From NCBI RefSeq assembly GCF_000219625.1, contig NC_018216.1:3348001-3412000 (forward strand): 64,000 nt of DNA. Direction: 5' to 3'. The translations under genes were made by a program, and so were the position numbers. Shown piece by piece: positions 51,681-60,500 of this stretch (position 1 is the stretch's first letter; every line of letters starts with the position of its first letter). The notes beneath the pieces were generated by a model. The model saw only the letters and a program-made list of their open reading frames with translations, did no database searches and was not told the origin of the DNA. Source of the DNA: Zymoseptoria tritici IPO323 (taxonomy: Eukaryota; Ascomycota; Dothideomycetes; Mycosphaerellales; Mycosphaerellaceae).

Positions 51681-53353
51681 CTACCACCTCAGATCTTCCT
51701 TAGATATCTTCGTGCGTAGCCGGCGAACATTCGGCTTAAATGACTTGACGCTGTTCTCCGGCGACTTCTTCCTTTGACTTTTACTCACGGATCCAGCGAG
51801 CCCGCCGTCAGCAATCATTTCCAGCTCGGCATCCCCAAGGACGAACGTAAAGATCTGACCCGCGACGTATAGAGCACGAGCCGTGTCGTCTCTTCGGACG
51901 TGAATTACGTGCTGCGCGGTCTCGTGGAAGGCGGGGTCATCTACCGTGATAGCAAGAAACCCGACGTTTGGTGCATTGCGTCCGAAGATGTAAGAGAACG
52001 ACTTGGCGGCGGTGCATCGTACCCGATCCCTACCCTCCAGATTTGGTCGACGCCTTTGACACTGAGATTTTGGGGAGATTCCGTACCTTCGAGGGTCCTA
52101 GTTGCTTCGTCAAGCGAAGATTCAGCCAAAGGCTGCACCACCAATAACGATTTCGAATCCGGATCGAACGTTTTCACGAGAGTCAGGATCAGTATGCTCG
52201 AAGCAGTGCGATCCAGATCTTCGTCACTCGTACTTGAAATGCAGGCAGGCGCGGGGATGATTTGACGAGTGTCAACAACTACTGTAGCCATTTTGCGGGA
52301 GGAGAGAGAGCCATGCTTACCGCTTCCGGGTCGATCTAGTCTCCCATGCTGTATGCTTTGCTTTCAATGATGCTCCCTGGAGGAGAGGAGGGCAAAACCG
52401 TCGCCCGATCCGTCTCTTCAGAGAACTCGGCAAACGCACGAAGATTTGGCTCGACATATAGACTGGTCCTGCGACTTGCTCTGGGAATTTGTCGAGAGAC
52501 CTGAGTCTGGTCGCTTTGCAGAATGCGAGGCAGTTCTCACATGTCTCTTCGGAAACACGGCGCAGCAGCTCACACGGATCAGTCAATTCCATGCTAAAAG
52601 ACCACGCGGCTACAGTGGCAGCCGAGCAAATGTGATTGATCGCGCCTGGCTCGGAGTGTCAGCAGATATTCGCCGAGTGTGTATCATTGCGGCCGAGCAC
52701 TCGTACCCTTTCCCATTCGGTCCTTGAACATTTGATTTTGCGAGGACAACCATCTGAAGCCCGGCTCAGCAATGTTCCCGGCAATTCCAAGGCACATGCT
52801 ACAGCCGGGAGCAGGTTGCTCGAAGCCGCATTTGGTGAAGATGTCCAGCAAGCCCATGTCTCTCAAGTTCCTGGCGATGGGCAGGCTCACTGCGACGACT
52901 ATCCGCTTTTCCTTGGAAAGCTCCAAGCCCTGCTGCAGACCGACCCGCAGTACCAAAGCAGCCAGAATAAGGTCCTCTTCAGTCGTCGTGCACGCCCCAA
53001 AAATACATCCATTAGAAGACTCTCCAACACAGTCCTTCACCGGGAATACACGATCCGAAGACGGATGAATCGCAACGAAAGACTCGCATTCTCCAAGGTC
53101 GACATCGATCACCTCTGCATGCACCGCGGCCTCATCTGGACGGAAGAATCTCGACTCGGATCTGTACATGCTGTGCTTCCTTGACTGGACGTAGCTTTGC
53201 GTGACCTCGTTCGGGACGAAGAGTGCAGTGATGGCACCGAATTCATGGACATATCAGCTGTGTTTTCGTCTCGCCTGACCGTTCCAATTCACCGTGCACA
53301 TGTTGCAGATCGCAGACCTAGCGTCGCAGCTCAGCGATCCCTGTTTGCTGCGC
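51681..53353 (-). pseudogene. Aconitase/isopropylmalate-isomerase superfamily gene, C-terminal half, broken
   Basis: Read from right to left on the minus strand: EFGAITALFVPNEVTQSYV (about 53250-53195), an Fe-S motif region FGACTTTEEDL and PGCSMCLGIAGNIAEPG (CxxC of the [4Fe-4S] cluster), SSQNQMFKDRMGKG, then across a plausible 62-bp intron (GTACGA donor, CTGAC branch, CAG) AINHICSAATVAAWSFSMELTDP. The swivel (small-subunit) domain follows: VVVDTRQIIPAP, GFEIVIGGAAFG, ESSLDEATRTLEG, AAKSFSYIFGRNAPNVGFLAITVDDPAF and VAGQIFTFVLGDAELEMIADGGL. These pieces fall in different frames, with stops between, so the gene is dead. Order of domains (large then small in one chain) matches fused fungal enzymes. 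The rest of the gene continues at 59588-60500 beyond a transposon. Confidence 0.85.
53346..53353. repeat. 8-bp target-site duplication, left copy
   Basis: TGCTGCGC, identical to 59588-59595, directly abuts the left terminal inverted repeat. In the aconitase-like gene it is the codons for Cys-Ala-Ala region on the minus strand. Confidence 0.9.
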
Positions 53354-53370
53354 CAGAGTGGTCAATATGA
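53354..53370 (+). repeat. Left terminal inverted repeat (17 bp)
   Basis: CAGAGTGGTCAATATGA; perfect complement of the right end. Starts with the CAGAG of hAT elements. Confidence 0.92.
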
Positions 53371-53559
53371 GATGTCATCAATAAGGTGTCATCAATGAAT
53401 CCTTAATATGACGGGCCCTTGATGAATTATAACGAGGTTACTGATGATATGAGAAGTTATTAATGACACCCCCGCGGCGAAGCCGACGGTATAGCCCCAC
53501 TTCCCCGGATTTTACCCCGGTTTCACCCTAAACTAGACCCTGTCGCCTAGCTAAGCCGG

Positions 53560-55030
53560 CTTTAAATACTAGATTTCGCAACGAAAGCGATAGTAATAAT
53601 ATATTAAATAGTACCTATCGCCCTTTATAAGTGCTTAACTATTATATAAAGTAGAAACGAAATTTATCGGGTAAATAGCTATAGAGTTATATATAATCCT
53701 ACTAGAAATAAGGCTAAACGTTCTATCGGACCCTTATTACCCCGCTAAGCCGGCTCTTATATACGAATTATAACAACGAGCGCAATTAGTATACTATCTA
53801 AAATAGAGTCTATATAGAAGATCGTAGTATAAGGTATCTTATAAGCTTTTTAAAAAAATAATCGCGTATATAGCCGTAGAGTTAGTACTTTTTCTTCCGA
53901 TATCTAAGCTTAGTACCCTAGTATCTATATACCCGGACTCTATTTACTCGTAAAGTCGGCTTTTCTATATAGAAATATCGATTACGTAGCGAGTTTCGAT
54001 TCTAAATAGCCGAGACTACTTATAAAATAGGCACTAATATATATACGATTACTATATATATTTATACGTAGCCTCGAGATATATAGAGCGTTATATACCG
54101 TCGTCGTCGTTACCTAAACCCTAAACCTAAGCGTAGATAAACATTAGGCGGGGGTTATTAATAAAATGTTATTAATAAATTATAACGAGCCTTCGTTACT
54201 AATAAGATAATATATAACGAGCATTTTACTAAGGGCTCGTTTAGAGAATTTTTAAGCCTCGTTTAGCGATCTTATAAGACTGCCTTATATAGATATTACG
54301 CTATCTAACGCGGACTAAATTACCCTTAGATAGCGTAATATAATACTATAAGACTAACGATAAGATAAGGGCGCCTCGTCGTCTACTAAGAGGTCTAAAG
54401 GTAGATGTTATTACTATTGTCGTTTAGTAAACCTCGGATTTTATTTAAAAGCGGGTCTAGCCGCACTCTGCGGGTAGAGCCGTAATATTAAATTCGTTAC
54501 ATTTTAGGGATTTACGTATTCTTATATAACATTTATACTATTAAACATCTACTACTACGACCTATATAAATACTAGCGCTATACTAGAACGATAGAAGAT
54601 ATTAAGCGCTCTCGTTTAGGCTATTAAGCATTAATTTCCGCCGTTATTCTATCGAGATTCGAGCCCGTTAATATAACCTCTTAATACTCTACCCCTAAGC
54701 CTTAGATCGACCCCTACCTACTCGGAGAGTCGGATTCTTAGCTATTTAAGGACGAGTTTCTCGATAATACGTAGTCGCTATACGACTTTAACGACTCTTA
54801 ACGTATTAACGACTCTTAAGTCGGCTCTTAGCTACTAGCTAGTACTTAGAGCTAGCCTTATAGCTAGAGCTAGCCTTATAGCTAGAGCTAGCCTTATAGC
54901 TAGAGCTAGCCTCTTACGGATAATAAGAAGATCGTATCTATCGCCGTAGACGCTATTATATTAGCTATTACTTAGAGCTAGAAGTAGAGCTAGAAGTAGA
55001 GCTAGAAGTAGAGGTAGAGCTAGAGCTATA
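53560..55030. other. RIP-mutated AT-rich DNA, content not identified
   Basis: Strong lack of CA/TG and abundance of TA, TAG and TTAT words mark RIP. Around 54840-54920 there are three to four copies of a ~21-bp unit (TAGAGCTAGCCTTATAGC core) and around 54985-55025 several AGAGCTAGAAGT units. A segment at about 54165-54200 resembles 53430-53460 after allowing C-to-T and G-to-A changes (AATTATAACGAG core), so a direct repeat may bracket part of this DNA. No protein similarity found. Confidence 0.5.
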
Positions 55031-59160: not shown

Positions 59161-59570
59161 CGGCGGCTCCGGTTAGGAGTTCTAGGGTACTAATAGTATT
59201 ATTAGTGTTATTATTAGAAGGTAGTAGTAGTAGTAGTAGTAATATAAGGTAATAATATAGCCCTATAAGGGCCTATAATATAGCCGAATAGCTATAAATT
59301 ACTACGAAATAGAGGTGTTAAGGTCTAGTCTACGTAACTACCTTATATTAGCTCCGGATTGCCTAAAAGGGCAAGCTAAAGTAAATTAAACTCTATATAA
59401 TATATAGCGGTAAGATAGCCTTATTTACGCTAGCCTTATATACTTATAACTATTCGGTAACTACATTTAACTAACGCTATATCAATTAGCTGCAATTTGG
59501 CGTTCGGTAACCTTATATATATAACGCTGAATAAAGCGTGAAGATTCTCCGAACGTGCCCTAATGAGTCG

Positions 59571-59587
59571 TCATATTGACCACTCTG
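59571..59587 (-). repeat. Right terminal inverted repeat (17 bp)
   Basis: TCATATTGACCACTCTG, the perfect complement of the left end. Confidence 0.92.
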
Positions 59588-59595
59588 TGCTGCGC
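59588..59595. repeat. 8-bp target-site duplication, right copy
   Basis: TGCTGCGC, identical to 53346-53353. Confidence 0.9.
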
Positions 59596-60500
59596 ACGTG
59601 TTCCCCTTTAGCCGTCCGAGGATGGAGAGAATTACGTCTTTGCCTCGGATGTACCACGCAATCTTGCCGGTCAAATTAATCCTGATGGTCTCTGGCACCC
59701 TGAACCACGTCTCGCCGGTTAGGAGAGCTGCCATTATCGCTGGCACCAAGTCCCATGGACAAGGTATTGACAGCGCCCGCCGAGCAGGTGTGTGCAACGG
59801 CTCCTATCACCACGATACCTGGCTCTGCTCGCTCTCTTACAAACTCGATGTGAAGGCTGGTGTACTACGCAATGGTCAGCTTGATATAGGAGCTGATGTT
59901 CTGGTCACGTTCCGATCGTATTGAGCGTCCCGGCCCCCGAATACATCTGCAGCGGGACCTGGCAAGGCGTGATTAGCACAGCTTCGTCGGACACTTGCGA
60001 GGAGAAGTCTGCAATCCCCCTAAACTGGCTCATCCAGTCCACGCACTTTGGTATGCGGCTCGTTCGGCGTGTCACTCAAGCTGGCGCGTGGCAGCAGCCC
60101 GATGCTTTCCACTATGACATCCGCTTGGTCGCTCAGAAAATCGCCGAACATGTTGCTTGTTACCAGAGGACTCCATTTTCCGCCCGAAAACTCTGCACCA
60201 GTTCCGCAACCACATTATCGACATGTAGATGTCGTTTCACTGCCAAAGACTCACCTTCCAGCGTCTGCGTGACATCTCCGCGCCAAAGCCGTCCACTTGC
60301 CCCTAGAAGGTCGCCTCATCGAAGCTCGTAATGGAAAGCGGAGGACCATGTTTCCTGGTCAGCAGAATGTTCCGGCCGCTCTCTGGCTGTCCTCTCAAGC
60401 TCGCTCCGTTGATTGATGTCGGTATCGAAAGCGGAGTTGAACGATCCATGGTGCACCTGTCGCACATGGAGTAGATGCCTCCCTATTAGTCCTCGCACAG
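59588..60500 (-). pseudogene. Aconitase/isopropylmalate-isomerase superfamily gene, N-terminal half, broken
   Basis: The other half of the split gene. On the minus strand, NVVAELVQSFRAENGV (about 60225-60175), then PGIVVIG-(AV)AHTCSAGAVNTLSMGLGASD and, after one extra base near 59737, MAALLTGETWFRVPETIRINLTGKI, GKDVILSILGRLKGNTCAA, which ends exactly at the transposon end with the duplicated TGCTGCGC. This is the canonical order of the catalytic large subunit, just upstream of what is left at 53350-51681. In the usual GADSHTC motif the Asp-Ser pair is changed to Val-Ala, so the product would be inactive even without frameshifts. The start of the gene (about 60250-60500) is poorly preserved. 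The small frames on the plus strand over this region are antisense shadows. Confidence 0.82.

What the first reader, a model, noticed from the sequence alone, without database searches (positions are those of the whole stretch)
51681..60500. A 6.2-kb TIR transposon sits inside an aconitase-family gene and splits it in two
The left and right flanks of the element code the C- and N-terminal halves of one minus-strand aconitase/isopropylmalate-isomerase-like protein. The split is at GNTCAA, where the 8-bp duplication TGCTGCGC lies on both sides, next to perfect 17-bp inverted ends. Gene function here was lost, and both halves have since gained indels and stops. A paralogue of a core-metabolism enzyme outside the usual Leu1/Lys4/Aco1 set, next to a secreted esterase and a PRISE reductase, suggests a lost accessory pathway.
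Basis: partly seen in the sequence, partly recalled or inferred. Interest (0 to 1): 0.9.

Follow-up and report, generated by a model that had tools for sequence, protein, structure and literature searches.

The report
Nested transposons in a dead gene
In the wheat fungus Zymoseptoria tritici, a small jumping element that was later filled by other mobile DNA sits inside the remains of a dead aconitase-type gene, beside the remains of a partner enzyme gene; it is an unusually readable but basically ordinary genome fossil.

Summary
The geometry is real: 53354-59587 has perfect 17-bp inverted ends and an 8-bp duplication (TGCTGCGC), and the flanks code collinear parts of one aconitase-family protein. 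Three readings change. (1) It is not one 6.2-kb transposon but a ~320-bp MITE filled by a 688-bp segment, a RIP-mutated PIF-Harbinger element with its own TAA duplication, and inside that an 826-bp SINE-like insert without its host's RIP pattern. (2) The gene is of the AMT8/HtyD type that lengthens amino-acid side chains for fungal peptides (best match 61%, Alternaria), distinct from the gene in the published AM-toxin-like cluster on chromosome 6 (54%). Exon 1 was not found, and next to it lies a relic of the partner isopropylmalate-dehydrogenase gene. A readable fossil of a lost two-gene module; interest modest.

The parts
51780..53334 (-). C-terminal part of the aconitase relic (P0001 residues 344-766), with introns at two places shared with the chromosome-6 gene; one 180-codon exon (52705-53244) still open
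   Evidence: PF00330 1e-22 on the open piece; pieces against P0001, P0003, P0021
59588..59864 (-). exon-2 part of the aconitase relic (P0001 residues 238-330), in two frames; exon 1 not found upstream
   Evidence: PF00330 E 3.9e-6, 26.6 bits, under its 28.7 cut-off
59906..60432 (-). relic of a 3-isopropylmalate-dehydrogenase-type gene (residues 97-282 of the chromosome-6 311-aa piece); the gapped match ends 41 bp from the aconitase relic, the strong ungapped part at 60017
   Evidence: PF00180 32.3 bits, cut-off 27, E 1e-6; tblastn 5.7e-17; tblastx 64% over 50 aa
53346..53353 (.). left target-site duplication TGCTGCGC
59588..59595 (.). right target-site duplication TGCTGCGC
53354..53466 (+). 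MITE left arm with 17-bp terminal inverted repeat
   Evidence: 86-93% to six other copies
54155..54232 (+). inner part of the MITE right arm, stranded between the two fillers, much changed (11 of the 13 private changes)
   Evidence: alignment to five complete copies
59561..59587 (+). outer end of the MITE right arm with inverted repeat
53467..54154 (.). filler A, 688 bp, between TTATTAATGA and TTATTAATAA; only one other copy found, inside another MITE of the family, in opposite orientation
54233..59560 (-). filler B, PIF-Harbinger transposon (GGGCTCGTT... and ...CGTGCCC ends; TAA duplications 54230-54232 and 59561-59563), heavily RIP-mutated
   Evidence: three other copies with TAA, TAA and TTA duplications; DDE_Tnp_4; dinucleotide indices
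57779..58216 (-). DDE_Tnp_4 transposase remnant of filler B with 9 in-frame stops
   Evidence: PF13359 46.1 bits, over cut-off
55400..56225 (-). insert C inside B: SINE-like element with a CAAA-rich tail on the minus strand, 13-bp duplication TACCCCTAGGTTA, without the RIP pattern of its host
   Evidence: 43 rows listed, 40 of 422 candidates scored; related copy with its own duplication in L038; indices

Best explanation
A two-gene metabolic module (isopropylmalate-dehydrogenase type next to aconitase of the AMT8/HtyD type, same strand) decayed on chromosome 3 of the Z. tritici lineage, with a deletion that took the end of one gene and exon 1 of the other. A ~320-bp hAT-like MITE jumped into exon 2 of the aconitase gene, more likely when it was already released from selection, and duplicated 8 bp. 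The MITE was then a landing site: a 688-bp segment (A), a PIF-Harbinger transposon (B) that was hit hard by RIP, and a SINE-like element (C) inside B, probably after that RIP. Shown: anatomy, duplications, family of B, identity of the relics, C after B. Inferred: gene decay before the MITE, one deletion between the two relics, order of A and B, RIP before C.
For: Five complete MITE copies of 296-327 bp with 8-bp duplications show that the outer unit is short. B has three other copies with no MITE ends at their borders, with TWA duplications and a DDE_Tnp_4 domain in all four. C has its own duplication in the window and in L038 and many copies. The right part of B has a (CpA+TpG)/(ApC+GpT) ratio of 0.09 against 1.25-1.28 in the gene flanks and 1.07 in C. 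Both gene parts match the same AMT8-type protein in order; top public matches of the exon-3 piece are AMT8/HtyD-side proteins, 61% to P0001. The dehydrogenase relic lies next to it. Decay: 21 of 116 sites invariant in 31 relatives changed, about 0.089 changes per base (0.055-0.136), against 2 private changes in 140 bp of outer MITE arms, 0.014 (0.0017-0.052).
Against: The dating is weak. Counted as differences from the family majority the MITE arms have 7 in 140, 0.050 (0.020-0.103), which overlaps the gene estimate; 5 of those 7 are shared with at least one other copy and may be inherited. With 95 relatives the gene figure is 8 of 49, 0.079 (0.034-0.156), which overlaps too. Conserved sites may have changed while the gene still worked. 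Exon 3 is open over 180 codons; at 0.089 some 1.4-1.8 stops are expected and the chance of none is 0.16-0.24. hAT rests on duplication length and terminal CAG (recalled criteria) only.
Confidence: 0.66

Rival explanations
1. The MITE itself killed a working gene (then or soon after filled by A, B and C); missing exon 1, frame changes and the neighbour's decay followed. The nest anatomy is the same.
For: The insertion is in the coding part; exon 3 is still a 180-codon open frame; by the majority count MITE and gene ages overlap.
Against: By private changes the MITE is younger than the gene's decay (0.014 against 0.089); the dehydrogenase relic decayed with no insertion found in it.
Confidence: 0.31
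2. One long autonomous TIR transposon of 6.2 kb.
For: Perfect 17-bp ends and an 8-bp duplication enclose it.
Against: Interior parts belong to families with other ends and duplications; the five unfilled copies are 296-327 bp.
Confidence: 0.02
3. The relic is a recent duplicate of the chromosome-6 AM-toxin-like gene.
For: Same gene type; the chromosome-6 cluster also holds an isopropylmalate dehydrogenase next to the aconitase. Sisterhood with the chromosome-6 protein is not rejected (p-AU 0.072).
Against: Closer to Alternaria (61%) and Cercospora zeina (59%) proteins than to the chromosome-6 protein (54%); gene orientation differs (same strand here, tail to tail there); the tree puts it beside C. 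zeina (90/85 and 87/84, not decisive).
Confidence: 0.12
4. Filler A is not a separate element but the native interior of a longer form of the MITE.
For: Only two copies found, both inside this MITE family at a near-identical site.
Against: Opposite orientation in the two copies, and the near-palindrome TTATTAATRA on both sides; five other copies lack it.
Confidence: 0.35

Closest known systems
AMT8 of the Alternaria alternata AM-toxin cluster, and the aconitase of Z. tritici 'cluster 18' on chromosome 6 (PMC5561558, PMC8102738; passages seen)
   Same: Aconitase-family enzyme of the same clade; in both, an isopropylmalate-dehydrogenase-type gene belongs to the set
   Different: Here dead, without exon 1, 54% to the chromosome-6 protein in the exon-3 piece, other gene orientation, and only two of the cluster's gene types detected
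HtyD (P0022 carries that name; its role in echinocandin-type pathways is recalled)
   Same: Same larger clade, 55% in the exon-3 piece
   Different: Falls outside the AMT8-side group that holds the relic
Nested transposon clusters of Z. tritici (PMC4522978, 78 reported; abstract and passages seen)
   Same: Nested, RIP-affected elements in the same species' reference genome
   Different: Those are described as mainly LTR elements in gene-poor regions; here the base is a MITE inside a pseudogene, and the fillers include a DNA transposon and a SINE-like element. Whether this very nest is among the 78 was not checked

Membership tests
MITE, hAT-like | short, inverted ends, family of copies | tested here: met
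   five complete copies 296-327 bp, 17-bp ends with 0-2 changes
MITE, hAT-like | 8-bp target duplication | tested here: met
   7 of 7 copies whose two ends were read; 6 exact, 1 with 7 of 8. Further partial or single ends (C6, C13, C14, C19) were not read
MITE, hAT-like | autonomous hAT partner with the same ends | tested here: inconclusive
   59 hAT dimerisation matches in the genome; their ends were not read
PIF-Harbinger (filler B) | 3-bp TWA duplication | tested here: met
   4 of 4 copies read: TAA, TAA, TAA, TTA; a fifth, partial match (L041) was not read
PIF-Harbinger (filler B) | Harbinger-type DDE transposase | tested here: met
   PF13359 in the window copy and at the places of L038, L039 and L040
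PIF-Harbinger (filler B) | second (Myb-like) protein | not tested
   frames are RIP-broken
SINE (insert C) | simple-repeat tail, variable-length duplication, many copies | tested here: met
   13-bp duplication in the window, about 12 bp in L038, 43 rows
SINE (insert C) | RNA-polymerase-III promoter from a small RNA | tested here: inconclusive
   no tRNA (bacterial-code ARAGORN) and no Rfam family at gathering score; promoter boxes not analysed
AMT8/HtyD-type aconitase | aconitase catalytic domain | tested here: met
   PF00330
AMT8/HtyD-type aconitase | groups with AMT8 proteins | tested here: met
   97/89 with 48 other rows (starred), 91/84 with 31 other rows (not starred); long branch
AMT8/HtyD-type aconitase | complete, working enzyme | tested here: not met
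   exon 1 not found, frames broken, 21 of 116 invariant sites changed

The most novel reading that the evidence does not exclude
The ancestor of this wheat pathogen carried a second, independently descended AMT8-type side-chain-lengthening module on chromosome 3, besides the chromosome-6 AM-toxin-like cluster, and lost it; the MITE nest then recorded the later history of genome defence (RIP on B, not on C).
Probability: 0.48. Interest if true: 0.42.

Novelty: new member of a known kind. Interest (0 to 1): 0.26.

Why it matters
It replaces a tempting story (a 6-kb transposon kills a metabolic gene) by a layered one in which the order of events is an open and testable question. It adds a second AMT8-type lineage, now dead, to a species whose AM-toxin-like cluster was argued to come by horizontal transfer (PMC5561558), and the nest gives a relative time scale (MITE, then a RIPed DNA transposon, then a SINE-like insert without that RIP) that can be set against the published recent loss of dim2 in many isolates, the reference among them (PMC8016269).

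Tried and rejected
Homologue search with the dehydrogenase relic piece: 1 candidate, none at E<=0.001. Pfam on one L039 open frame of filler B gave nothing useful; the DDE match came from the genome search. Rfam at gathering score and tRNA scan of the window: none. Literature searches for this relic or nest (listings with abstract starts; passages of five papers seen) showed no report; that says nothing beyond those searches, and supplements were not open. Rejected: the two parts come from different paralogues. Not testable here: empty site in other isolates.
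Full report
Where it is. The window is contig 3, bases 3348001-3412000, of a 39,686,251-base, 21-contig genome. The organism is Zymoseptoria tritici: the AMT8-type gene on contig 6 is 97-100% identical, stretch by stretch, to a protein of Z. tritici ST99CH_1A5 (P0021), and it lies inside 'cluster 18' (6:283,399-352,537), the AM-toxin-like cluster published for this species (PMC5561558, passages seen). That size and contig lengths are those of isolate IPO323 is recalled; its 21 chromosomes are stated in an abstract start.

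The ends. The 17-bp inverted ends and the flush 8-bp duplications are as described. Searches with the left end and with a complete copy gave five complete elements of 296-327 bp (C9, C10, C11, C14, C18), each with an 8-bp duplication (four exact, one 7 of 8), one more filled copy on C4 with an exact duplication, and partial or single ends on C6, C13, C14 and C19 that I did not read. The outer unit is therefore a MITE. Terminal CAG and 8-bp duplication suggest the hAT superfamily (recalled criteria); hAT transposases exist in the genome (59 matches), but none was tied to these ends.

The fillers. A (53467-54154) has a single other copy found, in the C4 MITE at almost the same MITE position, in opposite orientation, and there interrupted by an element with 215-bp direct terminal repeats. 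B (54233-59560) is a PIF-Harbinger element: three further copies (L038-L040) with TAA, TAA and TTA duplications, TAA here, and DDE_Tnp_4 in all four. C (55400-56225) lies inside B with a 13-bp duplication and a CAAA-rich tail; 43 rows were listed with 40 of 422 candidates scored, so the count is a lower bound. TpA/ApT and (CpA+TpG)/(ApC+GpT) are 1.92 and 0.09 in the part right of C, 1.70 and 0.22 in 53354-55390, 0.95 and 1.07 in C, 0.46 and 1.25 in the left gene flank, 0.60 and 1.28 in the right one. RIP thus struck A and B but hardly C and not the gene flanks; C's first ratio is higher than that of the flanks, so a light touch is not excluded. That MITEs and short elements are less RIPed, and that many isolates including the reference lost dim2 recently, is published (PMC4522978, PMC8759822, PMC8016269; passages seen).

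The gene. Kept apart, the two flanks match the same protein in order. Of five other aconitase-family loci in this genome the contig-6 gene is best for both (8e-93 left and 2e-31 right; next 3e-10 and 3e-5). The search with the exon-3 piece gave 1372 proteins at E<=0.001 among 2232 candidates, 120 listed. Trees of that piece place it among AMT8-side proteins, beside C. zeina P0003 (90/85 with 48 other rows, 87/84 with 31), on a long branch; sisterhood with P0021 is not rejected (p-AU 0.072), nor are two other placements (0.22, 0.24).

How it is broken. Homology starts within a residue or three of where exon 2 of the contig-6 gene starts; exon 1 gives no tblastn match at E<=0.3 in the flanks searched. 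Outside introns I count at least four frame-disturbing changes, one of them right beside the insertion, and one stop (read from frame changes between pieces, so approximate). Of 116 positions invariant in 31 listed relatives (P0001-P0031, each over 580 aa; shorter and later rows, among them the AMT8_ALTAL entry P0045, left out), 21 have changed: 15 of 66, 4 of 15, 1 of 16, 0 of 9 and 1 of 10 in five pieces that were chosen because they are still recognisable. Relatives left out one at a time average 0.06-0.29 changes per piece, largest 5. With 95 rows the pieces give 6 of 34, 2 of 8, 0 of 4, 0 of 0 and 0 of 3.

The neighbour. Next to the aconitase relic, on the same strand, lies the relic of an isopropylmalate-dehydrogenase-type gene (59906-60432). 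In the contig-6 cluster the two genes are tail to tail. A deletion joining the two relics is the simplest reading (inferred). Against 50 kb of the cluster (288.5-338.5 kb of about 69 kb annotated) no other gene has a convincing relic in the window; there are weak matches of window genes at 3.6-25.4 kb to one stretch of L044 that looks like a transporter (not tested).

Which came first. Gene decay corresponds to about 0.089 changes per base (0.055-0.136), or 0.079 (0.034-0.156) with the 95-row set. The outer MITE arms have 2 private changes in 140 bp, 0.014 (0.0017-0.052), but 7 differences from the family majority, 0.050 (0.020-0.103); five of these are shared with another copy and may be older than the insertion. 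The inner arm between A and B was left out because of RIP (11 of the window's 13 private changes). So the MITE more likely landed in a gene already released from selection, but the data allow the other order; the open exon 3 pulls towards a recent loss, not strongly.

Verdict. A real and readable palimpsest, ordinary in kind. The useful new facts are the nest, the AMT8-type identity and the dehydrogenase relic; the order of events is a lead.

Noticed in passing
L032:1073-8834 (contig 4): A second MITE of the family holds filler A in opposite orientation at nearly the same MITE position, itself interrupted by an element with 215-bp direct terminal repeats; no third copy of A was found.
   Followed up: partly
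L035:1019-1337 and L032:1073-8834: Two MITE copies on different contigs share the target duplication TCTGCGAC, perhaps a preferred target.
   Followed up: no
window 1-3000: AT-rich start of the window (GC 0.39-0.46) with 118-130-bp tandem repeats.
   Followed up: no
window 47823-49127 and 61101-62072: PRISE-like protein and carboxylesterase next to the relics are confirmed by Pfam; whether they belonged to the lost module is unknown.
   Followed up: partly
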